This document shows positions 27,919 to 59,862 of a stretch of 64,000 nt of DNA, in pieces. The notes beneath the pieces are model-generated. The model was not told where the DNA came from, did no database searches, and saw nothing but the letters and a program-made list of their open reading frames with translations. The stretch spans positions 1 through 64,000 of the forward strand of contig CALZUA010000012.1 in assembly GCA_945829235.1 (NCBI GenBank). Reading direction: 5' to 3'. Both the position numbers and the translations under genes were made by a program. The DNA is from an uncultured Clostridia bacterium. GTDB lineage: Bacteria; Bacillota; Clostridia; Oscillospirales; Ruminococcaceae. Positions within the stretch are counted from its first letter, which is position 1. Each line of letters opens with the position of its first letter.

Positions 27919-28040
27919 CGGCTTCGCCTTCAGTCCGCGGCTTCGCCTTCAGTCTGCGGCTTCGCCGCGAGTCGCGGGGCTTTGCCCCGCACCCCACAAG
28001 CCTTTTGAAAAAGGCTTGACCGAAAACTTTTTTTCGCTTC
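27919..28040. repeat. Dispersed multi-hairpin repeat (family 2), copy 1
   Basis: The 27786-28066 gap has no gene. It holds two partial repeats of CGGCTTCGCCTTCAGTC (from 27919), then hairpins GCGGC-ttc-GCCGC (27956-27968), GCGGGGC-ttt-GCCCCGC (27974-27990) and CAAGCCTTTT-ga-AAAAGGCTTG (27997-28018), then ACCGAAAACTTTTTTT. An inverted second copy lies at 59863-59945 with a compensating base-pair change in the middle hairpin. Confidence 0.85.
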
Positions 28041-28066
28041 GCGCGTGACTTTTTGAGTATGCGAAA

Positions 28067-36758: not shown

Positions 36759-37628
36759 TCAGCAATCCGTGAACGCAATCAGCTTTTCCCAACCCTCAGG
36801 GAAACCCAAATCCGACAGCCTGATGACCTCGTTGTTTTTCTTCAACATTCTTGAAATCGGCTTAACAACGCGCTCGTTCCAGTTGTCGTGTCCGTGGAAC
36901 AGCTGTTTCAGCACGATAATGTACCCGAAAACATTTGGTTCAAGCGTTTCGGGGAAACCATCGGGCGTTTTCGGTTCAACGGGGAAAGTTGTCCCGTAAA
37001 GACGGCAGTAGTGCGCGCAACTGTTTCTCAACTCGTTCAGACAGAAAATCCAGTTGTCCAGCTCACTTGACGAGCAGTTGTAGTATTCATCGGCAAGCTC
37101 TTTTTTGTCGGGATTTTTCATATCCTTGTAGAAAAACGCGAGCGACCCGAACGAAAACAGCTCCATCATAACCCAAAGCGGGAATTTGCCGCCGTATTTC
37201 GCGTTGTAGTGCTTTACGAATTGCCGGTCCTCATTTGCCTCGATGAGGTGATTTATCCTGCCGAGAAAGCTCGCGTGATTGTGGGAGAGGTTGAAGCTTG
37301 CGGGGTTGAGGTAGCCGAGTGCACCGTATTTCAGCGCGTGAAAGTTGGAAATTGCGGCACGGAGCGCGATTTCAACCTCCTCAAGCGCCGCCAGAAGCAC
37401 GCTTCTCAGCTTCCTGTCCATCTCGTAGACGCGCATTATTTTCTCAAAGGTTGTTCCGTCCTCGTACTTGTGCTTGCTCACGGAAAACGGCTCGAAGTAG
37501 TTCGACAGGCGGTAGTAGTTGATGTATTTCAACGTGTCGCGGGCTTTTTTCTCGTCCTCGATAATACAACCGCGCTGCTTTAATATCTTGATTTGCTCGT
37601 TAATCGTTGCGGGAGCTTTCTCGCGCAT
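36759..37628 (-). CDS. Abi family (AbiD/AbiF-like) HEPN protein
   Basis: A 289-residue protein of the Abi_2 family, abortive-infection proteins with a HEPN ribonuclease fold. N-terminal features are INEQIKILKQRGCII and TLKYINYYRLSNYF; the C-terminal NELRNSCAHYCRLYG supplies the HEPN R-x4-H active-site motif (RNSCAH), so it should be catalytically competent. The start MREKAP at 37628 has GGAG nine bases upstream; the earlier ATG at 37637 abuts that site. Upstream lie two cloverleaf elements and gpsA; downstream the TerB gene. Confidence 0.88.
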   Translation of the reverse strand: MREKAPATINEQIKILKQRGCIIEDEKKARDTLKYINYYRLSNYFEPFSVSKHKYEDGTTFEKIMRVYEMDRKLRSVLLAALEEVEIALRAAISNFHALKYGALGYLNPASFNLSHNHASFLGRINHLIEANEDRQFVKHYNAKYGGKFPLWVMMELFSFGSLAFFYKDMKNPDKKELADEYYNCSSSELDNWIFCLNELRNSCAHYCRLYGTTFPVEPKTPDGFPETLEPNVFGYIIVLKQLFHGHDNWNERVVKPISRMLKKNNEVIRLSDLGFPEGWEKLIAFTDC

Positions 37629-37714
37629 TTCCACCATCTCCGTTCATACTTTCTTCTAAAACAGGCTTTTGGTTTGTGCTCTTCCCACTTTCTGCGAGTG
37701 CTTGCTTCGTGCGT

Positions 37715-37801
37715 GGGCGGAACGCCCGTTTTTCGCTCCGCGAAAAACCTTCAGCGCTTCGCGCTGAAGCCTCGCGCCTTGCGCGAGGGGGCGTTCCGCC
37801 C
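37715..37801. repeat. Cloverleaf palindromic element, copy 1
   Basis: An 87-bp stretch that folds on either strand into a four-way junction with no unpaired junction bases. Outer stem GGGCGGAACGCCC (37715-37727) pairs with 37789-37801. Arm 1 GTTTTTCGC/GCGAAAAAC (37728-37748), arm 2 CTTCAGCGC/GCGCTGAAG (37749-37769) and arm 3 CCTCGCGC/GCGCGAGG (37770-37788) each close on a three-base loop. Conserved flanks, CTTTCTGCGAGT before and GATAGGACAGCAAAGCC after, extend the element to about 170 bp. It lies between gpsA and the Abi gene. Confidence 0.95.
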
Positions 37802-37955
37802 AACCGGTGGGTTTCGCAAAGCGAGATAGGACAGCAAAGCCGTGCGGGTATAGCACAAATTCGGCTCAATCCGTCCATCTCCGTTCAAAGTTTCATCTCA
37901 ATCAGGCTTTTGGTTTGTGCTTTTCCGGCTTTCTGCGAGTGCTGGCTTCGTGCGT

Positions 37956-38042
37956 GGGCGGAACGCCCGTTTTTCGCTCCGCGAAAAACCTTCAGCGCTT
38001 CGCGCTGAAGCCTCGCGCCTTGCGCGAGGGGGCGTTCCGCCC
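37956..38042. repeat. Cloverleaf palindromic element, copy 2
   Basis: Identical in its core to copy 1 and displaced by exactly 241 bp. The flanks are also repeated (about 37650-37850 versus 37890-38090), with scattered substitutions outside the core, so the whole unit was tandemly duplicated. Confidence 0.95.
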
Positions 38043-38116
38043 AACCGGTGGGTTTCGCTAAGCGAGATAGGACAGCAAAGCCGTGCGGTTAGTTTCGCAC
38101 GCTGTTGACAGCAAAA

Positions 38117-39118
38117 TCAGTCCGTCCAGTAGGTCTCGCGCTCGCTCTTGACGGCTCTGCTCATAAGCGCGCCGATTGAGTTTGTCGGTACTCCGCCGTT
38201 AAAGCAGATTTTGACGATTTGCTCGATAATCGGCACCTCGATATTATGCTCGTTTGCAAGGCGCAGAGCGGTTCGGCTGTTGATATAGCCCTCAACCGTA
38301 CCAACCTGCGCGACAGCCTCAGCGGCGGGTGTGCCCTTTCCGATAAGGAAGCCCGCGCGGTAGTTTCGGGAGTGCTGAGATGTACAGGTTACAATCAGGT
38401 CACCGAAGCCCGCCATTCCCGTGAAGGTTTTCCAGTTCGCTCCGAGCGCAACGGCAAGGCGAGTGATTTCGGTCATTCCTCTTGTGATAAGAGCGGCGAT
38501 TGTGTTGTCGCCAAGCCCCATTCCGCGCGCAATTCCACAACCAAGCGCAATCGGATTTTTCAGCACGCCGCCCAGCTCGCAGCCCACAATATCGTCGTTG
38601 ATATAGATACGATAACGCTCGTTTGAGAGGGTGCGCTGAATGTACGAGGCAACGTCCGGGTCATACGCCGCGCAGACCTCGGTTGTCGGAACAAGCCGCG
38701 CGATTTCCTCCGCGTGGCAAGGTCCCGTGATAACGCCGATTTTGCTGTGCGGGAGCTCCTGTCGAATAACCTCGGAAAGTCGGAAACCCGTTGCCTCCTC
38801 AAGACCTTTGCTTGCGTTGATGATAATGGATTTCGGGTTGATGAACGGCTTGACCGCGCAAACAGCGTCACGGTAAAACGCGGACGGAATACAGATAACG
38901 ACAATATCCGCGTCGGCAACGCACTCGGGATTTGTCGTGACCTTGAGCGCGTCGGGGAGCTTTACTCCGGGGAGCAACCGCTTGTGTTCGCGGTCGGTTC
39001 GGAGCTGTTCAGCCTCCTGCTCAAATTTTGTCCAGGTTGTCACATCGTGACCGTAGGTTGTATAAAGAACACCGAGAGCCGTGCCGTAGCCACAGCCCAA
39101 AATCGTTATTTTCGCCAT
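38117..39118 (-). CDS. gpsA: Glycerol-3-phosphate dehydrogenase [NAD(P)+]
   Basis: A 333-residue enzyme making sn-glycerol-3-phosphate for phospholipids. The nucleotide loop ILGCGYGTALGVL is slightly variant (second Gly then Tyr), NASKGLEE and GPCHAEEIAR are standard, and VLKNPIALGCGIARGMGLGDNT plus AGFGDLIVTCTSQHSRN complete the catalytic region. It feeds the same pathway as plsY, 1.7 kb upstream on the same strand. The gene ends just before the cloverleaf pair. Confidence 0.96.
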   Translation of the reverse strand: MAKITILGCGYGTALGVLYTTYGHDVTTWTKFEQEAEQLRTDREHKRLLPGVKLPDALKVTTNPECVADADIVVICIPSAFYRDAVCAVKPFINPKSIIINASKGLEEATGFRLSEVIRQELPHSKIGVITGPCHAEEIARLVPTTEVCAAYDPDVASYIQRTLSNERYRIYINDDIVGCELGGVLKNPIALGCGIARGMGLGDNTIAALITRGMTEITRLAVALGANWKTFTGMAGFGDLIVTCTSQHSRNYRAGFLIGKGTPAAEAVAQVGTVEGYINSRTALRLANEHNIEVPIIEQIVKICFNGGVPTNSIGALMSRAVKSERETYWTD

Positions 39119-39134
39119 AATTTCCTCCGTGTTT

Positions 39135-40202
39135 TCACTTTATAATATCCGTTTCCTTTGAGATTTTTATGCTTTTAAGCCCGCTTTTCATAACAATTCT
39201 CCGCAAAATCGGAGCGTACATAAACGGGCATTTCATCAGTTTAACCAGAATTTTAACTCGATAACCAAACAGCTTTTTCGAGTATCGCTTGCTTGCGTTT
39301 TGCTCACCGTTAAGCGCTTCGGCAAGATATTTCGCGCTGTTAACGGCAAAGCTGATTCCCTCAAGCGAACTCGGGCTGATAAGACCTGCCGCCTCTCCGA
39401 CAAGAAACGCGCCGTTTTTTCCCGCGCAGATATCGAGAGGGGATTTCGGACGAAGAACAACGCAGGCTTCTGTCTTTATCGGTTCACCAAAGCTGATTCC
39501 GTAATCCTCAAGCCGCTTTTTCTGCCGTTCAAACGCATCGCGGCAACCCTTTGCGGGAAACGCTCCGCCGTAAATCAGGAAGTTGTCCTTTGAAATTGTC
39601 CAGGAACAGCAGTCGCTGGTTTCGGGGTCGAAAATGCAGCTGTAAAACGGCTTCGCGTTGCTCTCGGGAAACCATTGTTGAATAGCGGTATAGCTTCGGA
39701 TTTTCTTTTTTGGATAAAGAAACCGCCTTACAATTGAGTTTGCGCCATCTGCGCCGACAATTCTTTCAGCCGTAAAAACACGCTCTCCGCTGTCCGATTT
39801 GCACAAAAGCGTAAAATCGCCGTCTGCGGTTATTTTAAGGCATTTCCCGTTGAACTGCACAACATTCTGCGGTATAAGACTTTTCAGCCACAAATCAAAC
39901 TTGTGTCGGTCAAGATTTATATAAAACCGCTGATAGTGCCGTTCGAGGCGTTTTCCGAGGTCGATTGTGCGGACGGAGAAAATCTGCGGGTCAACGAGGA
40001 TATCTTTCGGCAAGGTGAGGTCAAACTCCGCAAACGCTTTCTGCGCGTCGGGTGAAAGAAGCCCGCCGCAGGGCTTGTGAAAGCTCTCGGGAGCGTCGCT
40101 TTTGCTGTCAATCAGAAGCACCCGAAAACGCTTGTCAAGAAGCCGCGCCAGAGTTGCGCCCGCGGGCCCGCCTCCGATTATCGCAATATCAAAATCCGCC
40201 AT
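39135..40202 (-). CDS. Geranylgeranyl reductase-like FAD-dependent oxidoreductase
   Basis: A 355-residue flavoprotein of the geranylgeranyl reductase/para-hydroxybenzoate hydroxylase group. FAD motif DIAIIGGGPAGATLARLL at the N-terminus, KPCGGLLSPDAQKAF (the CGG motif of this family), VGADGANSIVRR, and GAFLVGEAAGLISPSSLEGI. Natural substrate unknown; possibly reduction of an isoprenoid or lipid. It is 16 bp upstream of gpsA on the same strand. Confidence 0.88.
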   Translation of the reverse strand: MADFDIAIIGGGPAGATLARLLDKRFRVLLIDSKSDAPESFHKPCGGLLSPDAQKAFAEFDLTLPKDILVDPQIFSVRTIDLGKRLERHYQRFYINLDRHKFDLWLKSLIPQNVVQFNGKCLKITADGDFTLLCKSDSGERVFTAERIVGADGANSIVRRFLYPKKKIRSYTAIQQWFPESNAKPFYSCIFDPETSDCCSWTISKDNFLIYGGAFPAKGCRDAFERQKKRLEDYGISFGEPIKTEACVVLRPKSPLDICAGKNGAFLVGEAAGLISPSSLEGISFAVNSAKYLAEALNGEQNASKRYSKKLFGYRVKILVKLMKCPFMYAPILRRIVMKSGLKSIKISKETDIIK

Positions 40203-40250
40203 ATTCCCCTCGTTGTCAGTTGCAGTTTGCTTTACGTTATATCGCCCGTG

Positions 40251-40700
40251 TCAGCGTTTCAGCTTCACAAGATACTCCGTTGTATCCTTTTCAAATTTCT
40301 TTTCATCGGTAACGTGAAAGCCGTGCCGCTCATAGAAACGAATTGCACGGACATTTTTCTCCAAAGCCCACAAAAACGTGACTTTGTGACGGTCAATCGC
40401 GTAATTCAGCAGCTTCTCGCCGATTGACTGCCCTTGAAACGAAGGCTCGACAAACAGCTTTTTAACCTCGTTCCCGTCAATCCTCACAAACCCTTTCACA
40501 ACGCCGTCATCGTAAACGCAGGAGTTCAGAACAAGATTCTCGTTTTTGAGGTAATTCTCTGAAAGCGAGGGTACGGAAAGAATGCTGAAAGAGTAGAAAT
40601 CGTTCTTGAAAATCGGGTAGAAATTCAGCCGGTTATTGAAAACCTCGATTTCCGCAAGTCTTGAAATATCGCGTGGTTCAGCCTGTCTGATATTTTCCAT
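40251..40700 (-). CDS. GNAT family N-acetyltransferase
   Basis: A 149-residue GNAT protein. The acetyl-CoA region is VKKLFVEPSFQGQSIGEKLL (the Q/R-x-x-G-x-G/A pattern kept as QGQSIG), followed by LWALEKNVRAIRFYERHGF. Typical single-domain length. Substrate cannot be told. Confidence 0.92.
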   Translation of the reverse strand: MENIRQAEPRDISRLAEIEVFNNRLNFYPIFKNDFYSFSILSVPSLSENYLKNENLVLNSCVYDDGVVKGFVRIDGNEVKKLFVEPSFQGQSIGEKLLNYAIDRHKVTFLWALEKNVRAIRFYERHGFHVTDEKKFEKDTTEYLVKLKR

Positions 40701-40709
40701 AATTCTCCT

Positions 40710-40830
40710 TTATTTCGCCTTTTCACCGAGCTTTTTCTCGCAGTGGTTGCAAAGTCGCTTGATGTTCTCGCGATGCCTGAAAATTATCAGCCCGCCGCAG
40801 AACACGCTCAAAACCGTGTTGACGATAAAC
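40710..40830 (-). pseudogene. plsY C-terminal fragment (tandem duplication)
   Basis: A 138-bp-spaced repeat of the plsY 3' end (parent 40848-40968). It would encode NTVLSVFCGGLIIFRHREN onward, nearly identical to the last 40 residues of PlsY, down to the same stop codon. It has no start or ribosome site. It is positioned directly downstream of plsY, the same arrangement as the recF-tail copy at 12002. Confidence 0.9.
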
Positions 40831-40847
40831 ACGGCGTGTTATCCGCA

Positions 40848-41510
40848 TTATTTCGCCTTTTCGCCGAGCTTTTTCTCGCAGTGGTTGCAAAGTCGCTTGA
40901 TGTTCTCGCGATGCCTGAAAATTATCAGCCCGCCGCAGAACACGCACAAAATTGTGTTCACGATAAACGAGATATCGTGGTCGATGAAGAAATCAAAGCA
41001 GAACGTTATCGCGAAAAATACCGCCGAGCAAATGCAGCTCCCGAGCGAAACGTAGCGGGTTATCCCGACAACAATGGCGAAAATTCCGATTAAAATCAGA
41101 CCGATGCGCCAATCGAGAAGGAATATCGCGGAGATTGCCGCGAGCACGCCCTTTCCGCCTTTGAAGCCGTAGTATACGGGAAAGCAGTGCCCGACAATCG
41201 CCATAAACACCGCGAACACCTCAACCCAGCTCATTCCGAGGGCGGGGTTTGTTGTATCAACGCCGCCTATGTAGAAGAACGCGAGCCGCACCAAAAGCAC
41301 ACCGATTGCCGCTTTTGACGCGTCGCCGATAAGCACGACAAGCGCGGCTTTTTTGCCGACCGAGCGCAGGGTGTTTGTAAGACCGGCGTTGTGGCTTCCC
41401 ATTGTGCGGATATCCTTGCCGGTTGTGATTTTTGTGACAATAATCGACGTGTTTATGCCGCCCATAAGATACGGTACCAAAATCATTATCGCGTAGCAAA
41501 TCCAAATCAT
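40848..41510 (-). CDS. plsY: Glycerol-3-phosphate acyltransferase PlsY
   Basis: A 220-residue multi-pass membrane enzyme using acyl-phosphate to acylate glycerol-3-phosphate. Motifs are GGINTSIIVTK near the start, the G-S-H-N-A-G loop SHNAGLTNTLRSVGKKAAL, and GHCFPVYYGFKGGKG in the middle. It has a C-terminal extension of about 20 basic residues (RENIKRLCNHCEKKLGEKAK) beyond the last helix. The start overlaps the upstream gene stop (ATGA). Confidence 0.95.
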   Translation of the reverse strand: MIWICYAIMILVPYLMGGINTSIIVTKITTGKDIRTMGSHNAGLTNTLRSVGKKAALVVLIGDASKAAIGVLLVRLAFFYIGGVDTTNPALGMSWVEVFAVFMAIVGHCFPVYYGFKGGKGVLAAISAIFLLDWRIGLILIGIFAIVVGITRYVSLGSCICSAVFFAITFCFDFFIDHDISFIVNTILCVFCGGLIIFRHRENIKRLCNHCEKKLGEKAK

Positions 41511-42079
41511 TTTGTTTCTTCCTTTTCTTCTGTTTTTTCTGAACCAACCAAATTTTCCGTTTTTTCGACAACTTTTCCGTTGATAATCACGGCAATTTCA
41601 GGATTTTTGCTTTTGAGAGCGGCGGCTAACATTGCCGAATTTTCCTCAGGTTCAACGGGGAGATTAACCTTTTTTTCGTTCCCGAGAACCAGCCGTAGCT
41701 TGTTTCCTTTTGGCTCGAGGCTTTTTATCTCGCTGTATTTCACAAGCTTGATTTGCCTTGCCGCGAAAAACACCGTGAAATGCTCGTAAAATCTACGTTT
41801 TCCAATTTGCGTGAACTTGCCGTTTTGGATTTCGCTTTGCTCGTTTTCGGGCAACTTTTTCAGTTGTTGTCCAAAACAAAACGGCGCGGTTAACGTCAAA
41901 ACCGTGATAACAAGCGCGTACAAAACAACGATGCTACTTACGATTATTGCAATTGTAAACAGGAATTCGTTCCCTCTCGCTGTCAGAAAAAGCCCCGCTG
42001 TCATAACCGCCGCCCAAACCCACTCTAAAATAGTTGACATTCGGTACAGCTTGAAATATTCCCGCTTTATCTCACTCAT
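41507..42079 (-). CDS. YcxB-like two-helix membrane protein
   Basis: A 190-residue protein: two membrane segments (about 15-60), then a cytoplasmic C-terminal domain with FYEHFTVFFAARQIKLVKYS and KVNLPVEPEE, the pattern of YcxB-like proteins. K/E-rich tail. The start MSEIKREY follows AAAGGAAA and overlaps the upstream gene by a few codons; ATG at 42082 is equally possible. Unknown function; related in layout to the gene at 8744. Confidence 0.7.
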   Translation of the reverse strand: MSEIKREYFKLYRMSTILEWVWAAVMTAGLFLTARGNEFLFTIAIIVSSIVVLYALVITVLTLTAPFCFGQQLKKLPENEQSEIQNGKFTQIGKRRFYEHFTVFFAARQIKLVKYSEIKSLEPKGNKLRLVLGNEKKVNLPVEPEENSAMLAAALKSKNPEIAVIINGKVVEKTENLVGSEKTEEKEETK

Positions 42080-42629
42080 CATCGGTTTCCTTTTGCGCTC
42101 TTTGCTCGTTCGTCCTATCAATCAGCTTGTTCATCAGCGCGGCTTTGTCCTCGTTTTTGCCCGTTCGCAAAAGCACCGAGCGACTCACGCTTTCAACCCA
42201 CAAGCCCTTTGCGAAAATTGAAATTCTATCAACAATCGAGTACCGCAAAATTCCCCCGCCGAAGCAAAAATACAGCATAAATTTCGACAGGAAAAACCGC
42301 CCGTTCTCGGACATCTCAGCAGTTTCGTATTCCTCGAGAAGCTGTTCTCTCTCGGCTGTCGGCAGGTTTTCGAGGTGACCTCTGAGCCGCTTCACGTCAA
42401 CAACAAACTGCGTTACAACGCCGTGTACAAACAAAAATCCGCACACAATCAGCACCGCGATAAACAGCCACTGTAAGCTCAGCATTGTTTTCACCGTGTC
42501 AACCGATGCGCTCGCCGACAGCCCGAACCATATTCCTACGTCCGCGCCTATCGCCGCCAAAAGTGCCGCTAACTTCACCGCGTTCGTTTTCAGCTTGTAC
42601 ACGCGAAAATCTCTCAATAACTTCTTCAA
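42072..42629 (-). CDS. Two-helix membrane protein of unknown function
   Basis: A 185-residue protein with two membrane segments (about 17-40 and 48-75) and a charged cytoplasmic C-terminal region (LRGHLENLPTAEREQLLEEY; ends in T/D/E-rich residues). It overlaps the following gene, so they form an operon with plsY. I recognise no family beyond a general likeness to its neighbour, of which it may be a diverged duplicate. Confidence 0.7.
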   Translation of the reverse strand: MKKLLRDFRVYKLKTNAVKLAALLAAIGADVGIWFGLSASASVDTVKTMLSLQWLFIAVLIVCGFLFVHGVVTQFVVDVKRLRGHLENLPTAEREQLLEEYETAEMSENGRFFLSKFMLYFCFGGGILRYSIVDRISIFAKGLWVESVSRSVLLRTGKNEDKAALMNKLIDRTNEQRAQKETDDE

Positions 42630-42709
42630 CTTTGTTCTCCTTTAATAAATTACATCTGCTCCAACCCTTTGGCTTTGCTATCCTCTCCGAGTATGCGAAA
42701 ACTCCGAGT

Positions 42710-42792
42710 GGACGGAACGCCCCCGCGCTCCGCGCGGCTTCGGCGCTTCGCGCCGAAGGTTTTTCGCGAAGCGAAAAACGGGCGTTCCGTCC
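42710..42792. repeat. Cloverleaf palindromic element, copy 3 (inverted, diverged)
   Basis: An 83-bp four-way junction of the same design, in the opposite orientation. Outer stem GGACGGAACGCCC (42710-42722) with 42780-42792; arms CCGCGC/GCGCGG, CTTCGGCGC/GCGCCGAAG and GTTTTTCGC/GCGAAAAAC. Relative to copies 1 and 2, the outer stem, the middle arm and the GC arm all differ by compensating changes that keep every pair. The CTTTCTGCGAGT flank and the GGATAGCAAAGCC flank are also present. It lies after the der stop. Confidence 0.93.
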
Positions 42793-42848
42793 GAGCACCG
42801 AGCTTGGAACTCGCAGAAAGTCGGAAGCCGCAGGAACTCAATCTCGGG

Positions 42849-44165
42849 TTACTCGCCGCGCTCGCGGATGGAGATTTTGATGGGCGTTTTGTCAAGCCCG
42901 AAGGTTTCGCGGATTTGGTTTTCGAGGTAACGCTGGTAGCTGTAGTGGAAGAGCTCCTTGCTGTTGCAGAAGATAACGAAGGTTGGCGGCGCGGTCGAAG
43001 CCTGCGTCATATAATAAACCTTGAGGCGCTTGCCCTTGTCGGAGGGCGGCTGAACGCGCGAGGTTGCGTAGGAGAGCATATCGTTGAGGACGCCCGTGGA
43101 GATGCGGCGGTTGTGCTGCTCGTGGACGATTTTTATAAGGTCGAAGAGCTTGTCAACGCGCGCGCCTGTTTTCGCCGAGATAAAGACGAACGGCGCGTAG
43201 CTCATAAACGAGAAGTCGTTTTCGAGCTTTTTCGTGAATTCCTGCATAGTTTTGTCGGTTTTCTCGGTGACAGCGTCCCACTTGTTCACCGCAATAACGC
43301 AGGCTTTTCCCTTGTCGTGAGCGTAGCCCGCGACCTTGCTGTCCTGCTCCGTGAAACCAACCGTAGCGTCAATCATCACAACGCAGACGTCCGCGCGGTC
43401 AACCGCCATAAGCGCGCGCAGAACGCTGAAATGCTCGATATTTTCGGTAACTTTCGCTTTTCGGCGCATACCCGCGGTATCGATGAAAATATACCTGTCG
43501 TCGCCGCGGATAACCTCGCTGTCGATAGCGTCACGCGTTGTTCCCGCGATATCGGAAACGATGGAGCGCTCCTCGCCCGTGAGATAATTCACAAGTGATG
43601 ATTTTCCGACATTCGGCTTTCCGATAACGGCAACCTTTATCGCGTTTTCGTCGTATTCCTCGGGTTCATCGGGAGGCAAATTCCTGAAAACTGCTTCAAG
43701 CAGGTCACCCGTGCCGTGTCCGTGAACCGCAGAAACGGAAATCGGGTCGCCCAGACCTAGATTATAGAATTCGTAGAATTCGGGCGGCGGCGCGCCGATA
43801 TTGTCGTCCTTGTTGACCGCGAGGACAACGGGCTTTCCGCTCTTCATCAGCATATTCGCAACGTCCGTGTCGTTTGCGGTAACGCCGGTTGTCATATCGG
43901 TAACAAAGATGATACAGTCCGCGGAGTCGATTGCAAGCATCGCCTGCTCACGCATTTGCGCTAAGATTATGTCATCGGTTTTCGGCTCGATACCGCCGGT
44001 ATCGATGAGCGTAAACTCGCGGTTGAGCCACTCGCATTTTCCGTAAATTCTGTCGCGGGTAACGCCCGGCGTGTCGTCAACAATCGACAGCCGTTTCCCG
44101 ACAAGTTTATTAAAAAGCGTGGACTTGCCGACATTCGGCCGTCCGACAATTGCCACTAAACTCAT
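42849..44165 (-). CDS. der: Ribosome-associated GTPase Der (EngA)
   Basis: A 438-residue double GTPase required for 50S assembly. First G domain: GRPNVGKSTLFNKL, DTGGIEP and VNKDD. Second: GKPNVGKSSLVNYL, DTAGMRRKAKV and NKWD. A C-terminal KH-like domain ends in TPIKISIRERGE. All motifs are intact and length is normal. Confidence 0.97.
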   Translation of the reverse strand: MSLVAIVGRPNVGKSTLFNKLVGKRLSIVDDTPGVTRDRIYGKCEWLNREFTLIDTGGIEPKTDDIILAQMREQAMLAIDSADCIIFVTDMTTGVTANDTDVANMLMKSGKPVVLAVNKDDNIGAPPPEFYEFYNLGLGDPISVSAVHGHGTGDLLEAVFRNLPPDEPEEYDENAIKVAVIGKPNVGKSSLVNYLTGEERSIVSDIAGTTRDAIDSEVIRGDDRYIFIDTAGMRRKAKVTENIEHFSVLRALMAVDRADVCVVMIDATVGFTEQDSKVAGYAHDKGKACVIAVNKWDAVTEKTDKTMQEFTKKLENDFSFMSYAPFVFISAKTGARVDKLFDLIKIVHEQHNRRISTGVLNDMLSYATSRVQPPSDKGKRLKVYYMTQASTAPPTFVIFCNSKELFHYSYQRYLENQIRETFGLDKTPIKISIRERGE

Positions 44166-44959: not shown

Positions 44960-45160
44960 TGCCAAACCGAGCCGCTCTCCCGATAACCAAGTCGCGCGTT
45001 GCTCGATAATCAACCCGTGCGTTGCTCGATAATCAACCCGCACGTTACCCAAAACCGAGCCGCGCGTTGCTCGATAATCAACCCGCGCGTTATCCAAAAT
45101 CGAGCCGTGCGTTGCTCGATAATTAACCCGCCCGTTACCCATAACCAAGCCGCGCATTGT
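44960..45160. repeat. 22/23-bp tandem repeats after jag
   Basis: The word CGTT or its variant recurs at 44997, 45020, 45043, 45065, 45088, 45110, 45133 and 45155 (as CATT), 22-23 bp apart. Two unit types alternate partly: CGTTGCTCGATAATCAACCC and CGTTACCCAAAACCGAGCCG. Reading frames through it (for example 44909-45157, minus) are open only because the unit lacks stops; they have no ribosome site. It lies beyond the jag terminator. Confidence 0.85.
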
Positions 45161-45163
45161 CCG

Positions 45164-45190
45164 AAAAAAGCCGCCCGAAATCGAGCGGCT
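45164..45190 (-). terminator. Terminator of the rpmH-rnpA-yidD-yidC-jag operon
   Basis: On the minus strand AGCCGCTCG, loop ATTT, CGGGCGGCT then TTTTTT, 16 bp after the jag stop. Confidence 0.88.
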
Positions 45191-48806: not shown

Positions 48807-48835
48807 TTTACAGAATTATTATAATGTGCTATAAT
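48807..48835 (+). promoter_or_regulatory. Promoter of leucine-rich-repeat gene 1
   Basis: TTTACA, 17-bp spacer ending TGTGC, TATAAT. The same arrangement GTTTACAGAA...TGTGCTATAAT recurs at 50738 and 54250. Confidence 0.85.
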
Positions 48836-48935
48836 GACCTTATTGATTTTTGACAATTTTGTTTAAATCGACAAATTTGTACGGCAGATTTTCCAAACGT
48901 ATTTTATAATGAAGAAAAACAACGGAGGTAAAACG

Positions 48936-50501
48936 ATGAACGATAATAACAGCAGGTTAATCCCCGAAAAAACCGCGCCCGCCGAATATATCTTGTCGGT
49001 GCTTGAAGACGGAACTGCGTCCATTGAAAGATATTTGGGCAACAGCGAGAACATTGTTGTTCCCGAGGAAATTGACGGATACCGCGTGACGAGGATAGGC
49101 GAAGGCGCATTTTGCAAGAGCTTGTCGCTTCAATCCGTAACCGTTCCGAGCGGCGTCACCGTCATAGGTGAATATGCGTTTGCGTGGTGCAGTGCGCTCT
49201 CGATTGAGCTTCCCGACAGCGTGCAGGTGATAGGAAAATGCGCGTTCAAGGGTTGCTCGTGTCTTTCGGCGATTTCAATTCCCGAGAACACCGAGAGGAT
49301 AGGCAAATCAGCGTTTGAGGAGTGCGCGTCAATTGTCGAGGTAAATCTACCCGATGGCTTGGAAAAAATTGAAGATAATATGTTTTTTGATTGCAGTTCG
49401 CTTGCAACGGTACACATTCCCGACAGTGTGCGCGTGATAGGAAAGGACGCGTTCGAGGATTGCGAGGCACTCACATCGATAAACATTCCCGAGGGTATCA
49501 CGATGATAAGTGAAGGCGCGTTTGTGGGTTGCATAAAGCTTGAGTCGATAAACCTTCCGGCAAATCTGACCGAGATATGTGATTCGACATTTTCTTGTTG
49601 CGAATCGCTTAAATCGGTTGAAATTCCCGATGGTGTTAAGGTGATAGGTGAATTTGCGTTCTCGGGGTGTTCATCACTCAGGTCGGTGAAAATCCCCGAC
49701 AGTGTGGTTGAGATACGGGAAAGAGCGTTTTTTGCCTGCGAATTGCTTGAATCGATAAATATTCCCGAGGGCGTAAAGCCGGGCTTTTTCGCGTTTAACG
49801 GCACTCCTCTCGAGAACAAGTACGGCGATAAAGCTGAGGACGCGGATAATCTCCGGTATTTCAATGGAGAAACCCCCGAAGTCAGGAATGACTGCGGTGA
49901 AAAAGCCACATCTGCCGATAAATTTGCGTGGAGTATACTTGACGAAACGGTTGTTATCGAGAGATTTTTGGGTGATGACGAGAACGTTGTTATTCCCGAG
50001 GAAATTGACGGAATGCCCGTTACCGAGATAGCCAACGGCGCATTTTGCAATTGTCATTCGCTTGTATCGGTAAACATTCCGAACACCGTGGTCTTTATAC
50101 GCGAATATGCGTTTGCGAATTGCAAATCGCTCGCGTCGATTAAATTTTCCAACACTCTGTTGGTGATAGGCGACAGCGCGTTCAAGAACTGCACGGCGCT
50201 TACATTGTTGAAAATTCCCGACAAGACAGAATTTATAGGTAAGAGCGCGTTTGCGAACTGCGTTTTGCTCAAATCGATAAACATTCCCGAAAACGTAACG
50301 ATAATAGAACGCGAAACGTTTTACAATTGCAAATCGCTCGAAGCGGCAACCCTTCCCGATAATTTGAGGGTAATAGATTTCGGCGCGTTTATGTCGTGCC
50401 GGTTGCTTTCGGACCTGATAATTCCCGAGAATACGATTGTTGACAGCTCAGCATTTCGGTATACCCCGTTTGAAGCCGATTTTCGCGAGAACAAACGCTA
50501 A
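48936..50501 (+). CDS. BspA-type leucine-rich-repeat protein 1
   Basis: A 521-residue protein made of LRR_5-type repeats of 23 residues (consensus around IP-x-x-V-x-x-IG-x-x-AF-x-x-C-x-x-L-x-S/T-I). It has two copies of an entry module of about 40 residues (W-S-x-L-x-x-x-x-V/A-x-I-E-R-x-L-G, then V-V/I-P-E-E-I-D-G), at about residues 25 and 330; the first set of repeats ends in GTPLENKYG. No signal peptide or membrane helix is visible, so it appears cytoplasmic unless exported otherwise. The start MNDNNSRL has GGAGG seven bases upstream. Function unknown. Confidence 0.88.
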   Translation: MNDNNSRLIPEKTAPAEYILSVLEDGTASIERYLGNSENIVVPEEIDGYRVTRIGEGAFCKSLSLQSVTVPSGVTVIGEYAFAWCSALSIELPDSVQVIGKCAFKGCSCLSAISIPENTERIGKSAFEECASIVEVNLPDGLEKIEDNMFFDCSSLATVHIPDSVRVIGKDAFEDCEALTSINIPEGITMISEGAFVGCIKLESINLPANLTEICDSTFSCCESLKSVEIPDGVKVIGEFAFSGCSSLRSVKIPDSVVEIRERAFFACELLESINIPEGVKPGFFAFNGTPLENKYGDKAEDADNLRYFNGETPEVRNDCGEKATSADKFAWSILDETVVIERFLGDDENVVIPEEIDGMPVTEIANGAFCNCHSLVSVNIPNTVVFIREYAFANCKSLASIKFSNTLLVIGDSAFKNCTALTLLKIPDKTEFIGKSAFANCVLLKSINIPENVTIIERETFYNCKSLEAATLPDNLRVIDFGAFMSCRLLSDLIIPENTIVDSSAFRYTPFEADFRENKR

Positions 50502-50560
50502 ATCCCCGAAAAAACAGCCGGCTTTTGCAGGATTTTTCTTCGATATCTTAATTAGTTATC

Positions 50561-50680
50561 TTGGCAAAAAAAGCTGTTGTGGTATAATGCTTTTGGCGAA
50601 TATTGACGAATTTGTGCGGTAAATCTCGGCAAGAGGTTGCAATAAAACAACTGAGGCACTCCCCTCGAGGATAAATTATT
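50561..50680 (+). pseudogene. Remnant of an eighth LRR gene (promoter, leader and tail only)
   Basis: A promoter (TTGGCA, 16 bp, TATAAT at 50561-50588) and the family leader (GCGAATATTGACGAATTTGT) lead straight into GGCACTCCCCTCGAGGATAA (about 50656-50675), the DNA that encodes the family C-terminal tag GTPLEDK. The body is missing, as if recombination between repeats deleted it. Confidence 0.75.
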
Positions 50681-50688
50681 CTCTGAAA

Positions 50689-50716
50689 AAATATGTACGT
50701 TTAAAAGTACATATTT
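50689..50716. repeat. 10-bp perfect inverted repeat
   Basis: AAATATGTAC, 8-base loop, GTACATATTT. No T-run follows in either direction, so it is an operator-like or processing hairpin 22 bp before the LRR2 promoter. Confidence 0.6.
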
Positions 50717-50737
50717 CCGGAGACACCCCAAAAATTG

Positions 50738-50766
50738 TTTACAGAATTTTTTTAGTGTGCTATAAT
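50738..50766 (+). promoter_or_regulatory. Promoter of leucine-rich-repeat gene 2
   Basis: TTTACA (50738-50743), 17-bp spacer, TATAAT (50761-50766); a near copy of the promoter at 48807. Confidence 0.85.
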
Positions 50767-50843
50767 GAATTTACTGAAAATTGATGTACTTGTTTTTATC
50801 GATGATTTGTTCGGTAAATGTGCTGAAAACGGAGGTAAAATTT

Positions 50844-53417
50844 ATGAATTGTACAAACAGCAAGAATGAAGCTTTCGAAAAAACCACGCCGGTTGAAAAT
50901 TTTGAGTGGTCGGTTCTCGGGGACGGGACGGTAAGCATTGACGATTACAAGGGAGATGACGAGAATGTTGTTATTCCCGCGGAAATTGACGGGAAACGCG
51001 TGACGGCGATAGGTGAAGGAGCGTTTTATGACTGCGAATCGCTCGCATCGATAACTATCCCCGAGAGCGTAACGGCGATAAAAGAGTGCGCGTTCTGGTA
51101 TTGTACCGCGCTCTCCTCAATAAAACTTCCAAATAGCCTGACGGAGATAGGCGACAGCGCATTCGGTCATTGCGAATCGCTCACATCGATAACCATTCCC
51201 GAGGGCGTGACGAAGATAGGAGGCTGTGCGTTTTTGGAGTGCTTTTCGCTTGCTTCGATAACTATTCCCGACAGCGTAACAGCAATAGGTATCTGTGCGT
51301 TTTTGGAATGCTTATCACTCAAATCGATAAACATATCCGAAAACGTAACGGAGATAGGCGACAGCGCGTTCGGTCATTGCAAATCTCTTACATCAATAAC
51401 CATTCCCGACGGCGTGACGAAGATAGGTTGTGGTACGTTCATTAACTGTACATCTCTCACCTCGGTAAATATCCCCGAAAGCGTAACGGAAATAGGCAAT
51501 CATGCGTTCGAGGGTTGTGAATTGCTTACATCGATATTTATTCCCGACAGTGTGACAAAGATAGGCGACAGCGCGTTTTATGGCTGCTTATCGCTCACAT
51601 CGTTAAACATTCCCGACAGCGTAAAGGAAATCGGCGGGTACGCATTTTATGAGTGCTTCTCGCTTTCATCAGTAAACATTCCCGCTGGATTGAAAAAGAT
51701 AAACAGCGCAATGTTCTATAACTGCGTATCGCTCAATTCGATAAATATTCCCGACAGCGTTACGGAGATAGGCAATCAGGCGTTTTTTGGTTGCGAATTG
51801 CTCACCTCGCTGAAAATTCCCGACAGCGTGACGGAAATAGGCTGGCGCGCTTTTGAGGAGTGTACATCGCTTTTATCGGTAAACATTTCCAAAGGATTGA
51901 AAGAGATAAACAGCAGTCTGTTCTGTAATTGCTCATCGCTTTCCGAGATAGAAATACCCGAAGGCGTGACGGAGATACGCGACTGCGCGTTTGTCGGCTG
52001 TAAATCGCTCACCTCGGTGAAAATTCCCGAGGGAGTGACAAAGATAGGCGGCGCTGTGTTTTGTGACTGCACTTCGCTCACGTCAATAACCATTCCCGAC
52101 AGCGTGACAGAGATAGGCGAAAACACGTTTGTCGGCTGTAAATCGCTCATCTCAATCAAGCTCCCCGAGGGCGTGAACAAAGCTGATGTTTTAACCCCTC
52201 ACTTCAGCAAAAAATCAAAACGAAACGGAAGAAAAATTAAAGATTTTTCAAACAACAAGAATGAGGTTCTCAAAAACTCAACGCCTGTAGAGGATTTCGA
52301 GTGGTCGGTTCTCAACGACGGAACGGTAAAAATCAATGGCTACGACGGTGATGACAAGAACGTTGTCATTCCCGCGGAAATTGACGGGAAAAAGGTGACG
52401 GCGATAGGAAAATACGCGTTCGCGGATTGCACTTGGATTATCTCGGTAATCATTCCCGACAGCGTAACCGTGATAGGCGGTCACGCGTTTGAGTTTTGCC
52501 TAGCGCTTTCATCTGTGTTAATTTCCAACAATGTGTCGATGATAGGAGAGGCTGCATTCTTCGGCTGCGAATTGCTCACATCAATAACAATTCCCGCCGG
52601 TGTGACAGAGATAGGCAAATGCGCGTTTTGTGGTTGCAAACAGCTCACATCGATAAACATTCCCAACGGAGTTACGAGGATAAGCGCGAGCACATTCGAC
52701 GACTGCAAATCGCTCAAGGAAATAACCATTCCCGACAGCGTGACGGCGATAGGCGAAAAAGCGTTCTATAAATGCACATCGCTCGCATCGATAACGCTCC
52801 CCGAGGGTGTGACGGAAATAGGCGCATGGGCGTTCTACGAATGTGAGTCGCTTGCGGCAATCAATATCCCCGAAAGCGTCACGGAGATAAGGTGCGGCGC
52901 GTTCTTTTCCTGCAAATCGCTTACATCAATAAAGCTCCCCGCCGGCTTAACCGAGATAAGAGAAAATGTGTTCCACAGATGCAAATCGCTCGCCTCGGTT
53001 GCTATTCCCGATGGCGTGACGGCGATAGGCGAAAATGCGTTTATGTTCTGCAGAGCGCTTCCGTCGATAACCATTCCCGACAGCGTGACCGTGATAGGAG
53101 ATTACGCGTTTTGCGACTGCGAATCGCTCACGTCAATAACCGTTTCGGGTAACGTGACTGAGATAGGTGAAGCTGCGTTTGCGGGCTGCACAATGCTTTT
53201 GTCGTTTGCTGTTCCCGACAAGGTAACAAGGATAGGCAAAGAAACGTTTTCCGACTGCCGGTCACTCCTATCTGTAACCATACCCAACGGCGTGACTGAG
53301 ATAGGTGAAGAAGCGTTCTCAAATTGCGAATTGCTTACCTCGATAAACATTCCCGAAAGCGTGAAGATAGCCAAAAACGCATTTATAGGCACTCCCATCA
53401 AAGATAAGTATAAGTAA
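50844..53417 (+). CDS. BspA-type leucine-rich-repeat protein 2 (largest)
   Basis: An 857-residue protein with some thirty 23-residue LRR_5 repeats in two blocks. Each block starts with the entry module: FEWSVLGDGTVSIDDYKGDD at about residue 20 and FEWSVLNDGTVKINGYDGDD at about 480, then VVIPAEIDGK and VTAIG. It ends in GTPIKDKYK, a variant of the family tag. No signal peptide. The start at 50844 has GGAGG before it; the longer frame from 50781 runs through the leader. Probably made by fusion of two single-module genes. Confidence 0.9.
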   Translation: MNCTNSKNEAFEKTTPVENFEWSVLGDGTVSIDDYKGDDENVVIPAEIDGKRVTAIGEGAFYDCESLASITIPESVTAIKECAFWYCTALSSIKLPNSLTEIGDSAFGHCESLTSITIPEGVTKIGGCAFLECFSLASITIPDSVTAIGICAFLECLSLKSINISENVTEIGDSAFGHCKSLTSITIPDGVTKIGCGTFINCTSLTSVNIPESVTEIGNHAFEGCELLTSIFIPDSVTKIGDSAFYGCLSLTSLNIPDSVKEIGGYAFYECFSLSSVNIPAGLKKINSAMFYNCVSLNSINIPDSVTEIGNQAFFGCELLTSLKIPDSVTEIGWRAFEECTSLLSVNISKGLKEINSSLFCNCSSLSEIEIPEGVTEIRDCAFVGCKSLTSVKIPEGVTKIGGAVFCDCTSLTSITIPDSVTEIGENTFVGCKSLISIKLPEGVNKADVLTPHFSKKSKRNGRKIKDFSNNKNEVLKNSTPVEDFEWSVLNDGTVKINGYDGDDKNVVIPAEIDGKKVTAIGKYAFADCTWIISVIIPDSVTVIGGHAFEFCLALSSVLISNNVSMIGEAAFFGCELLTSITIPAGVTEIGKCAFCGCKQLTSINIPNGVTRISASTFDDCKSLKEITIPDSVTAIGEKAFYKCTSLASITLPEGVTEIGAWAFYECESLAAINIPESVTEIRCGAFFSCKSLTSIKLPAGLTEIRENVFHRCKSLASVAIPDGVTAIGENAFMFCRALPSITIPDSVTVIGDYAFCDCESLTSITVSGNVTEIGEAAFAGCTMLLSFAVPDKVTRIGKETFSDCRSLLSVTIPNGVTEIGEEAFSNCELLTSINIPESVKIAKNAFIGTPIKDKYK

Positions 53418-53512
53418 TTCCGCAAAACGCGCTGACGCGGTGCAATTTTTGTCAACTATTGTTGATTTTGAACAGCAACTGCCCGAAAAGGAAACGACAA
53501 CGGAGGTTAAAT

Positions 53513-54193
53513 ATGAATTGTATAAAGTGCAATCGAGAAATTCCCGAGGACTCGGTTTTCTGCCCGTTTTGCGGAGGAAAAGTTGCGGCGGCTTGCTCGG
53601 CGTGCGGCGCGGAGCTTATCGATGACTCTGAGTTTTGTCGATTTTGCGGGGCGAAGGTTGAGGAGGGCGCAGTTCCCGCAACGCCTGCCGATAAGTTTGA
53701 GTGGTCGGTTCTTAAAAACGGGACAGTAAGCATTGATGAATACAATAGAGGTGAAAAGAAGGTTGTCATTCCGTCTATAATTAGTGGGAGAAGAGTATCG
53801 AGGATATCTTCCGATTCGTTCGCAGGTGAACCGCTCGTATCGATAACCATTCCCGAAAGCGTGGAAACGATTGATTGTTGGGCGTTCTCTTTTTGCAAAG
53901 CGCTTTCATCTGTAAACATTTACAACGGCGTAAAAATAATTGATGAATTTGCGTTTTGTGATTGCAAATCGCTCACATCAATCAACCTCCCCGACAGCGT
54001 GACAAAGATAGGACAGGGCGCGTTCAAGGGTTGCGCTTCGCTTGAATCAATAACCTTCTCCGAGAACTTGACCGAGATAGGAAAGCACACGTTCAAGGGT
54101 TGCACATCGCTCACATCGATAAACCTCCACGACAGCGTGAAGATAGGCAAAAACGCGTTTAAAGGCACTCCCCTTGAAGATAATTTCAAATAA
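53513..54193 (+). CDS. Zinc-ribbon plus leucine-rich-repeat protein 3
   Basis: A 226-residue protein beginning with two zinc ribbons: CIKC...CPFC (Cys3/6/18/21) and CSAC...CRFC, each C-x2-C pair spaced 10-15 residues. The LRR entry module (FEWSVLKNGTVSIDEYNRG) and about five repeats follow, ending in GTPLEDNFK. Zinc ribbons of this kind usually head regulatory or membrane proteins. The only member here with them. CGGAGG lies just before the ATG. No clear promoter in the 95-bp gap, so read-through from gene 2 is likely. Confidence 0.88.
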   Translation: MNCIKCNREIPEDSVFCPFCGGKVAAACSACGAELIDDSEFCRFCGAKVEEGAVPATPADKFEWSVLKNGTVSIDEYNRGEKKVVIPSIISGRRVSRISSDSFAGEPLVSITIPESVETIDCWAFSFCKALSSVNIYNGVKIIDEFAFCDCKSLTSINLPDSVTKIGQGAFKGCASLESITFSENLTEIGKHTFKGCTSLTSINLHDSVKIGKNAFKGTPLEDNFK

Positions 54194-54249
54194 ATCAAAA
54201 GTCTGCTTGTTCTTGCAAAAAAAATTTTTGGGGGAAATGTGATTTTTTG

Positions 54250-54278
54250 TTTACAGAAAAATTTTGATGTGCTATAAT
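54250..54278 (+). promoter_or_regulatory. Promoter of leucine-rich-repeat gene 4
   Basis: TTTACA (54250-54255), 17-bp spacer ending TGTGC, TATAAT (54273-54278); same promoter type as LRR genes 1 and 2. Confidence 0.85.
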
Positions 54279-54336
54279 TATATCAGCGGATAAAACTTGT
54301 GCGGAAAATGTTCTATGATAATAATGGAGGTAAATT

Positions 54337-55791
54337 ATGAATAATTCAATCAATAAGAATGAGGTTCTCGAAAACACAACGCCTGTTGAGGATTTCATAT
54401 GGTTGGTTCTCATCGACGGCACGGTAAAAATCAATTACTACGATGGCGATGACGAGAAAGTTGTCATTCCTGCGGAAATTGACGGGAAAAGGGTAACGGA
54501 GATAGGAAAATTCGCGTTCGCGGATTGCAATTGGATTACCTCGGTAATCATTCCCGACAGCGTGACAACGATAGGGGACGGCGCGTTTTCGGATTGCGAA
54601 TTGATAAAGTCGATGAATATTCCCGAGAGCGTGACAACGATAGGCGACGGTGCGTTCGATAACTGCACGTCGCTCTCCTCGATAAATATTCCCGAGGGCG
54701 TGACGGTGATAGGCGGATATACGTTTGAATATTGTTCATCGCTCACATCAATAACAATTCCCGCCGGTGTGACAGAGATAGGCGAATGTGCTTTTTATGG
54801 TTGCGAACAGCTCACATCGATAAACATTCCCGAGGGCGTAACGGTGATAGAAGCGGGTGCGTTCAAGAACTGCACGGCGCTCACATCGGTAACCATTTCC
54901 GAGGGCGTGACCGAGATTGGCGAATGTGCGTTCGAGAATTGCACATCGCTCTCCTCAATCAACCTCCCCGACAGCGTGACGGTGATAGACGCGGGTGCGT
55001 TCGAGAATTGCACGGCGCTCTCCTCAATCAACCTCCCTGACAGCGTAACGGTGATAGACGCGGGTGTATTCAATAACTGCACATCGCTTACCTCAATCAA
55101 TCTCCCCGATAGCGTGACAGAGATAGGCGAATATGCTTTTTATGGTTGCGAACAGCTTACCTCGATAACCATTCCCGAGGGCGTAACGGTGATAGAAGCA
55201 GGTGCGTTCAAGAACTGCACGGCGCTCACATCGGTAACCATTTCCGAGGGCGTGACCGAGATTGGCGAATGTGCGTTCGAGAGTTGCACATCGCTCACCT
55301 TAATCAATCTCCCCGACAGTTTGATGAATATAGGCGAGAGTGCGTTCGAGAATTGCACATCGCTCACCTCAATCAATCTCCCCGACAGCGTGACGGTGAT
55401 AGACGCGGGTGCGTTCGAGAACTGCACGGCGCTCTCCTCAATCAACCTCCCCGACAGCGTGACCGAGATTGGTGATTCGGCGTTTTACGAATGTAAAGCG
55501 CTTACATCGATAAACATACCGGACGGTGTGACCTTGATAGGCGATAATACTTTCTTTGGCTGTAAATCGCTTTCATCGATAAACATTCCCGATGGTGTTG
55601 CGGAGATAGGAACAAGGGCGTTTTATGGTTGCAAATCGTTCACCTCGATAACCGTTCCCGACAGCGTTAAGGTGATAAAACAATTCGCGTTCCGAGAATG
55701 TACATCGCTCACCTCAATCAAGCTCCCCGATGACGCATATAAAGGCGTTGGCTTGCTTATGGGCACACCCCTCGTGCCTAAAGGCAAATAA
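54337..55791 (+). CDS. Leucine-rich-repeat protein 4
   Basis: A 484-residue LRR_5 protein: entry module (FIWLVLIDGTVKINYYDGDD) then about nineteen 23-residue repeats, ending in GTPLVPKGK, a decayed tag. The block at 54806-54953 is repeated almost exactly at 55151-55297, 345 bp or five repeats apart, so the array grew by internal duplication. No signal peptide. RBS TGGAGG. Confidence 0.88.
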   Translation: MNNSINKNEVLENTTPVEDFIWLVLIDGTVKINYYDGDDEKVVIPAEIDGKRVTEIGKFAFADCNWITSVIIPDSVTTIGDGAFSDCELIKSMNIPESVTTIGDGAFDNCTSLSSINIPEGVTVIGGYTFEYCSSLTSITIPAGVTEIGECAFYGCEQLTSINIPEGVTVIEAGAFKNCTALTSVTISEGVTEIGECAFENCTSLSSINLPDSVTVIDAGAFENCTALSSINLPDSVTVIDAGVFNNCTSLTSINLPDSVTEIGEYAFYGCEQLTSITIPEGVTVIEAGAFKNCTALTSVTISEGVTEIGECAFESCTSLTLINLPDSLMNIGESAFENCTSLTSINLPDSVTVIDAGAFENCTALSSINLPDSVTEIGDSAFYECKALTSINIPDGVTLIGDNTFFGCKSLSSINIPDGVAEIGTRAFYGCKSFTSITVPDSVKVIKQFAFRECTSLTSIKLPDDAYKGVGLLMGTPLVPKGK

Positions 55792-55805
55792 TTCTCCGAA
55801 GTCAG

Positions 55806-55833
55806 AAGCCTGCCCGCTCGAGTAGGCTTTTGT
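55806..55833 (+). terminator. Terminator between LRR genes 4 and 5
   Basis: AAGCCT / AGGCTT stem around GCCCGCTCGAGT, then TTTTGTT. Confidence 0.7.
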
Positions 55834-55885
55834 TATCTTAAAATCTCGGCGAGTGTTATAATGAAAAACAATGGAGGTAAAAACT

Positions 55886-56578: not shown

Positions 56579-56659
56579 TCGAGCTCGTGGTATAATATTT
56601 TTGGCGAAATCTCGGCAAATGCTCTATAAAAAAGAAAAACAACAACGGAGGTAAAAACT

Positions 56660-57214: not shown

Positions 57215-57219
57215 TCCCA

Positions 57220-57248
57220 AAAGCCTGCCCGCTCGGACGGGCTTTTTG
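57220..57248 (+). terminator. Terminator after LRR gene 6
   Basis: GCCCG-ctcgga-CGGGC stem followed by TTTTTG. It abuts the next promoter, whose -35 begins at 57254. The same terminator-promoter cassette recurs before coaX. Confidence 0.8.
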
Positions 57249-57253
57249 TTATC

Positions 57254-59846: not shown

Positions 59847-59862
59847 ATACTATGAGTTTTCG

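What the first reader, a model, noticed from the sequence alone, without database searches (positions are those of the whole stretch)
37715..42792. A fully paired cloverleaf DNA element in three copies, with compensating base changes
Seen directly: at 37715-37801, 37956-38042 and 42710-42792 the sequence forms a 13-bp outer stem and three hairpin arms with three-base loops, and not one unpaired base at the four-way junction. Copy 3, inverted and diverged, keeps all pairs through paired changes (outer stem G:C to A:T, middle arm A:T to G:C, GC arm re-made). Both 13-mers of the outer stem are themselves small hairpins (GGGCG-gaa-CGCCC), so an alternative fold exists. Conserved flanks (CTTTCTGCGAGT; GATAGGACAGCAAAGCC) extend it to about 170 bp. 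Such covariation argues that the fold, in DNA or RNA, is what is kept. It matches no element class I can name; a REP/MITE-type mobile element, or a structure recognised by a recombinase or nuclease, are possibilities.
Basis: partly seen in the sequence, partly recalled or inferred. Interest (0 to 1): 0.85.

Follow-up and report, generated by a model that had tools for sequence, protein, structure and literature searches.

The report
Three-armed cloverleaf DNA insertions
Between genes of some gut bacteria sit short inserted stretches of DNA that can fold into a perfect three-leaf clover; the fold is kept while its letters change widely between species, and its loops look like those of folded DNA rather than of RNA.

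Summary
The three copies fold into a 13-14 bp outer stem with three abutting hairpin arms and no unpaired junction base. A covariance model finds the same plan, often with very different sequence, in 16 of 43 genus genomes at E<=1 and 9 of 43 at E<=0.001; single cases lie in other genera.

In 472 kb, mostly chosen around such hits, all 57 multi-hairpin arrays have exactly three arms; Markov versions and 200 kb of E. coli have none. Sites at der and on contig C20 are occupied in some close relatives and empty in others: these are insertions.

Loops follow the DNA minihairpin rule: closing C-G in 182 of 186 arms, GNA in 69 of 102 triloops, GNNA in 77 of 82 tetraloops, of which only 16 fit RNA's GNRA. 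G-U pairs are rare (6 of 1588).

Best reading: non-autonomous, MITE-like insertions whose conserved part is a DNA four-way-junction fold. The moving enzyme is unknown; Y1 and IS110 transposases do not track with it. Literature searches listed no such family.

The parts
37714..37802 (+). Copy 1, cloverleaf core (outer stem 37714-37727 with 37789-37802; arms 37728-37748, 37749-37769, 37770-37788)
37955..38043 (+). Copy 2, cloverleaf core, identical to copy 1 over the 87-nt core
42710..42792 (-). Copy 3, cloverleaf core, inverted and diverged
37623..37850 (+). First unit of the tandem duplication that holds copy 1
   Evidence: 16 differences to the second unit, none in the core
37864..38091 (+). 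Second unit of the tandem duplication, holds copy 2
42630..42848 (-). 219-nt spacer between der and the next ORF; spacer of -20 to 145 nt in 28 of 30 der loci of the genus
37638..38116 (-). 479-nt spacer between gpsA and the Abi_2 gene, filled by the two repeat units
42849..44165 (-). der (EngA GTPase), upstream neighbour of copy 3
42072..42629 (-). ORF of 185 aa, no Pfam family, downstream neighbour of copy 3
38117..39118 (-). gpsA, upstream neighbour of copies 1 and 2
36759..37637 (-). Abi_2 family gene, downstream neighbour of copies 1 and 2

Best explanation
These are short DNA insertions of MITE-like habit, without a recognised gene. Their constrained part is a three-armed cloverleaf that one DNA strand, or both in a cruciform, can form: a fully paired four-way junction whose three arms end mostly in DNA minihairpin caps (C-GNA-G or C-GNNA-G). 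Shown: the fold and its covariation, the three-arm rule, the loop rule, occupied and empty sites, placement in both orientations. Inferred: the cloverleaf is the structure that a trans-acting enzyme (a structure-specific recombinase, transposase or resolvase-like enzyme) recognises when the element moves as single-stranded or cruciform DNA; and polymerase template switching inside the hairpins helps to copy a change from one side of a stem to the other, so that letters drift while pairing stays.
For: Insertion: der spacer 219-220 nt in G000 and G009, -20 to 145 nt in the other 28 of 30 loci; the C20 site is occupied in G000 and G023, empty in G009 and G031. Architecture: 57 of 57 arrays three-armed in 471,798 bases, none in Markov versions, none in 200 kb of E. 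coli. Covariation. DNA loops: 182 of 186 closing pairs C-G, 69 of 102 triloops GNA, 77 of 82 tetraloops GNNA, against 43 of 135, 10 of 31 and 3 of 20 in other hairpins of G000, G035 and G014, and 29 of 97, 4 of 20 and 9 of 25 in E. coli. In 39 G036 copies the tetraloop ends never differ (0 of 2964 comparisons) while inner loop bases differ in 51%, stems in 2.8% and the neighbouring tail in 23%. G-U pairs 6 of 1588 and 11 of 1593. Contexts with neighbours in all orientations.
Against: No mover was found: Y1 and IS110 families do not track, other transposases were not searched. Ends are unclear: an inverted pair (10 of 12 bases) is seen by eye only in the G009 remnant; target duplications were not established. 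Some stems carry unpaired changes: outer A-C in G009, A-G in G023, T-T in the C20 copy and in two G009 copies; 3 of 45 elements do not fold into three hairpins. G036 supplies 34 of the 62 elements of the loop count; without it GNA is 50 of 69 and GNNA 11 of 14; in G035 alone GNA is only 6 of 17. Other G036 hairpins are also rich in C-G closing (234 of 386), GNA (72 of 177) and GNNA (35 of 100). 18 of 57 arrays lie in a crude ORF of at least 90 aa; the eight of these ORFs that I scanned have no Pfam family.
Confidence: 0.6

Rival explanations
1. Structured RNA: the cloverleaf acts in transcripts of the neighbouring genes or as a small RNA (processing signal, terminator, stabiliser).
For: Very stable RNA fold and covariation; copies 1-3 lie downstream of gpsA and der on the transcribed side.
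Against: No Rfam family reaches its gathering score in the window or in four other stretches; only 16 of 82 tetraloops fit GNRA; G-U pairs are rare; gene contexts are mixed (13, 6, 10 and 5 for co-directional, reversed, convergent and divergent, with further copies at stretch ends or in crude ORFs); copies differ in orientation at the C20 site.
Confidence: 0.12
2. Mutational upkeep alone: replication template switching in palindromes creates and repairs perfect hairpins, and the fold has no function.
For: Paired substitutions, paired indels and a GAA/TTC loop exchange at orthologous sites; the process is described, with loop inversions, for RNA genes (PMC8794818, abstract and Discussion read).
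Against: It does not explain exactly three arms in 57 of 57 arrays, stem sequences far more alike than the adjoining tail or frozen loop ends in G036, or new sites. In G036, of 42 tails found without regard to the cloverleaf, 36 have it intact by the descriptor.
Confidence: 0.15
3. A host site: a chromosomal landing place for a junction-binding protein (repair, replication or nucleoid), not a selfish element.
For: The plan equals a capped Holliday junction; dozens of copies in G036.
Against: Patchy: 34 of 43 genomes of the genus give no hit at E<=0.001 (with filters that lose weak matches), and copy number runs from none to dozens; sites differ between close relatives.
Confidence: 0.08

Closest known systems
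Bacterial MITEs (Correia/NEMIS, ERIC, RUP, CIR, Yersinia palindromic/RU-2)
   Same: Short repeats, mostly intergenic, highly base-paired, insertion-like (PMC2229807, passages)
   Different: Those are described as long stem-loops, CIR as two arms with a linker; none of the passages seen describes a three-armed, fully paired four-way junction. Here sequence changes between species and the fold stays
REP / REPIN elements with RAYT (Y1) transposases
   Same: Dispersed palindromic repeats, hairpins as possible mobility signal (PMC3733652, passages)
   Different: No consistent GTAG or CGTC tag at the foot, no Y1 transposase in nearly all element-bearing genomes, three arms instead of one or two hairpins
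Integron attC sites
   Same: Folded single-strand DNA as recombination site (recalled)
   Different: Mixed orientation of neighbouring copies in G035; integrase not searched
DNA minihairpins with GNA or GNNA loops
   Same: The loop type that caps the arms; described as extraordinarily stable with G-C pairs (PMC4686876, passages)
   Different: Known as synthetic or single hairpins, not as the caps of a genomic repeat family (in the passages seen)
Hairpins kept by replication template switching
   Same: Multi-base compensatory changes and loop inversions (PMC8794818, abstract and Discussion)
   Different: Described for RNA genes; here insertions with a fixed arm number

Membership tests
Bacterial MITE | Short, non-coding, dispersed insertion with empty orthologous sites | tested here: met
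Bacterial MITE | Terminal inverted repeats | tested here: inconclusive
   By eye only: 10 of 12 bases in the G009 remnant, not clear in the other copies
Bacterial MITE | Target site duplication | not tested
   Ends not defined well enough
Bacterial MITE | Parent transposase sharing the ends | tested here: inconclusive
   Only Y1 and IS110 families searched; neither tracks
REP / RAYT element | GTAG or CGTC tag at one foot of the palindrome | tested here: not met
   41 of 57 arrays have neither tag nor its complement within 10 nt of the core; 7 have the first, 9 the second
REP / RAYT element | Y1 (RAYT) transposase in the genome | tested here: not met
   0 matches in the own genome; of 9 genomes with element hits at E<=0.001 only G042 has one, with a stop inside
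Structured RNA family in Rfam | Match above the curated score | tested here: not met
   0 matches in the window and in 4 further stretches
Integron attC site | Integrase and co-oriented cassette array | tested here: inconclusive
   Neighbouring copies in G035 C30 and C31 are in mixed orientation; integrase not searched

The most novel reading that the evidence does not exclude
A class of mobile DNA defined by a DNA fold instead of by sequence: a natural Holliday-junction mimic with three DNA-minihairpin caps, recognised as folded single-strand or cruciform DNA by an unknown junction-specific enzyme, whose letters turn over between species while the fold is kept. It would be a DNA counterpart of a structured RNA family.
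Probability: 0.3. Interest if true: 0.92.

Novelty: new variant of a known kind. Interest (0 to 1): 0.8.

Why it matters
Covariation is usually read as the mark of a functional RNA. Here is a repeat family with strong covariation whose loops and pair types point to DNA, so it separates the two readings, and it offers a natural test case for how compensatory changes arise (selection against template switching). If a junction-specific enzyme moves it, that would be a new way to recognise a mobile element.

Tried and rejected
Rfam at gathering score: nothing; at a relaxed threshold only sub-threshold matches, none on the cores. Y1 transposase as mover: absent from nearly all element-bearing genomes. 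IS110 as mover: 7 of 43 genomes, among them G000 and G038 but not G036, G035, G014, G002, G009, G023 or G042. Link with the Abi_2 gene: in many relatives the gpsA-Abi_2 junction exists without the element. Strand preference on G036 contigs: 18 against 21 (replication direction not resolved). Integron-like array: mixed orientation. Described family in print: full-text searches (listings), with passages of PMC10969869, PMC3733652 and PMC2229807; none with this architecture, but most subscription papers are not held.

Limits. The stretches of the 57-array count were mostly chosen because they held model hits; the control samples were not, except that its family/order set holds the known G086 contig and one G035 stretch, and two requested stretches did not exist. 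The family search scored 15 candidates per genome, so 4 of 297 is a lower bound. The descriptor demands Watson-Crick arms with loops of 3-5 and tolerates 1-nt gaps; it cannot measure mispairing and misses the imperfect G009 der copy. Mispairing was judged on 45 elements, 7 of which came from the descriptor list. The 39-copy G036 set was collected with a pattern that fixes the outer stem and the start of arm 1; the other arms and the loops were free. Tail-anchored test: 44 tail matches, 42 with the 5' end kept, 36 with an intact cloverleaf by the descriptor, and of the other 6, by eye, 4 with one mispair (one of them with an extra base too), 1 truncated, 1 cut by the end of the fetched stretch. 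In some searches, 7 of 30 loci each were not parsed; one search covers all 30 der loci. The 94-row alignment holds both strands of most elements, so its rows are not independent.
Full report
1. What is there. The window lies in contig C12 of a 3.2-Mb, 52-contig genome. Copies 1-3 fold as described, z about -7 to -10 with RNA and DNA parameters. Copies 1 and 2 belong to one tandem duplication whose 16 differences all avoid the 87-nt core. The searches found six copies in the own genome: three on C12, one on C20, two on C15.

2. Insertions. Of 30 der loci fetched (43 of 43 genomes have der-like matches), the spacer after der is 219 and 220 nt in G000 and G009 and -20 to 145 nt in the other 28. 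The 21 others whose sequence was printed show no element by eye, and the 7 not parsed there have spacers of at most 81 nt. G023 carries a der copy. At gpsA, of 23 parsed loci, G000 has two copies and G009 a remnant that kept one outer 13-mer and half of arm 1; I see no element in the other 21 (300 nt each). A third site, C20 in G000, is occupied in G023 in the opposite orientation (4.7 kb aligned at 80% across it) and empty in G009 and G031. So these are insertions that differ among close relatives. Whether C20 shows an inversion or two separate insertions cannot be told.

3. A family defined by architecture. A covariance model from five copies gave hits in 16 of 43 genus genomes at E<=1 and, by my count from the table, 9 of 43 at E<=0.001: G000, G002, G009, G014, G023, G035, G036, G038, G042. 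The sequences read around hits differ greatly, but most show the same plan: outer stem, three abutting hairpins, loops of mostly 3-4 bases. In 271 kb of G036 there are 43 arrays, in two sequence families of about 73 and 88 nt. A descriptor that accepts two, three or four arms found 57 arrays in 471,798 bases, all three-armed; Markov versions of the same stretches, three of each, gave none. Samples not chosen by hits gave one small two-armed array in 383,487 bases of 20 genus genomes, only the already known G086 copy in 286,134 bases of mainly family and order genomes, and none in 200,000 bases of E. coli. Outside the genus, G086 and G058 (4 of 297 genomes at E<=0.001 in all, two of them of the genus) and G347 of another family (2 of 39 at E<=0.01, the own genome included) have the plan with quite different letters.

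4. Covariation. On the 94-row alignment fitted to the model, 96% of cells pair, all 37 pairs have changes on both sides, and the covariation score is 0.654 against 0.140 in shuffles and at most 0.091 with partners slid. On the five-row alignment 7 pairs changed on both sides against 3.0 (1 of 500 shuffles reached it), score 0.151 against 0.065. At orthologous sites I read from the sequences paired substitutions (three in the middle der arm between G000 and G009/G023), paired indels (third der arm; first arm of both C15 copies) and loop changes that often stay within GNA or its complement (GAA to GCA, GGA to GAA). Unpaired changes occur too: A-C in the G009 outer stem, A-G in a G023 arm, T-T in the C20 copy and in the two G009 counterparts of the C15 copies.

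5. DNA or RNA. In 62 distinct elements (186 arms) the closing pair is C-G in 182; triloops are GNA on one strand or the other in 69 of 102; tetraloops GNNA in 77 of 82, of which 16 would fit GNRA. G036 supplies 34 of the 62; without it GNA is 50 of 69 and GNNA 11 of 14; G035 alone has GNA in only 6 of 17. Other hairpins: G000, G035 and G014 together 43 of 135 C-G, 10 of 31 GNA, 3 of 20 GNNA; G036 234 of 386, 72 of 177, 35 of 100; E. coli 29 of 97, 4 of 20, 9 of 25. In 39 G036 copies the tetraloop ends never differ, the inner bases differ in 51% of comparisons, triloops in 60%, stems in 2.8% (10.5% in the middle arm, there mostly in pairs) and the adjoining tail in 23%; of 1207 pair cells 1203 are Watson-Crick, 4 mispaired, none G-T. 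In 45 elements G-U pairs number 6 of 1588 on one strand and 11 of 1593 on the other; 42 of 45 fold into three hairpins. DNA mini-hairpins with a GNA or GNNA loop and G-C pairs are described as extraordinarily stable (PMC4686876, passages); that selection of stable DNA tetraloops also gave a cGNNAg class, and that G-U pairs are common in structured RNAs, is recalled. Together this favours a DNA fold.

6. Mechanism. Neighbouring genes lie in all orientations and the strand on G036 contigs is even. Of 57 arrays, 39 are outside any ORF of at least 90 aa by a crude call; 18 lie inside one, and the eight such ORFs scanned have no Pfam family, so I take them for spurious. Patchiness and empty sites fit a non-autonomous mobile element. 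The exclusive four-way geometry suggests that the folded junction is what is recognised; that is inference. Template switching (PMC8794818, abstract and Discussion) can explain paired changes and loop exchange, but not the fixed arm number, the frozen loop ends or the new sites; I think it works together with selection. In G036, of 42 tails located without the cloverleaf, 36 have it intact. The enzyme is not identified: Y1 and IS110 families do not track.

7. Place among known things. It works like a MITE, but terminal repeats are inconclusive, target duplications untested and no parent was found. It fails two tested features of REP/RAYT elements. No Rfam family matches. The searches listed nothing with this architecture.

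Noticed in passing
window 27976-28045 and 59861-59930: Another dispersed repeat: a 70-nt inverted pair, 96% alike, built of small palindromes (GGGGCTTTGCCCC and AAGCCTTTTGAAAAAGGCTT).
   Followed up: no
L159-L172 (G036): The 73-nt cloverleaf is followed on one fixed side by a conserved tail of about 100 nt and then by variable hairpin modules and a further repeat (CACTCAGCACT...AACTGTAAACTGTTA); these spacers look like mosaics of repeat modules.
   Followed up: partly
L118, L119, L120, L132, L133 (G035, G038), left flanks: A second palindromic module (GGCTTTTCC...GGAAAAGCC around further hairpins) often stands directly beside the cloverleaf.
   Followed up: no
L157:7531-7611 and L158:3164-3249: At one orthologous spacer the element lies in opposite orientation in two species and is absent in two others.
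   Followed up: partly
window 48825-58200: Long arrays of 69-nt direct repeats (23 codons if translated), with repeated 126-300 nt blocks between them.
   Followed up: no
window 40710-40968: Tandem pair of 121 nt, 96% alike, at the end of the plsY-like gene.
   Followed up: no
window 11964-12429: Tandem pair of 233 nt, 92% alike.
   Followed up: no
window 44980-45167: Repeats of about 22-23 nt next to and inside the jag-like reading frame end (gene name recalled, not searched).
   Followed up: no
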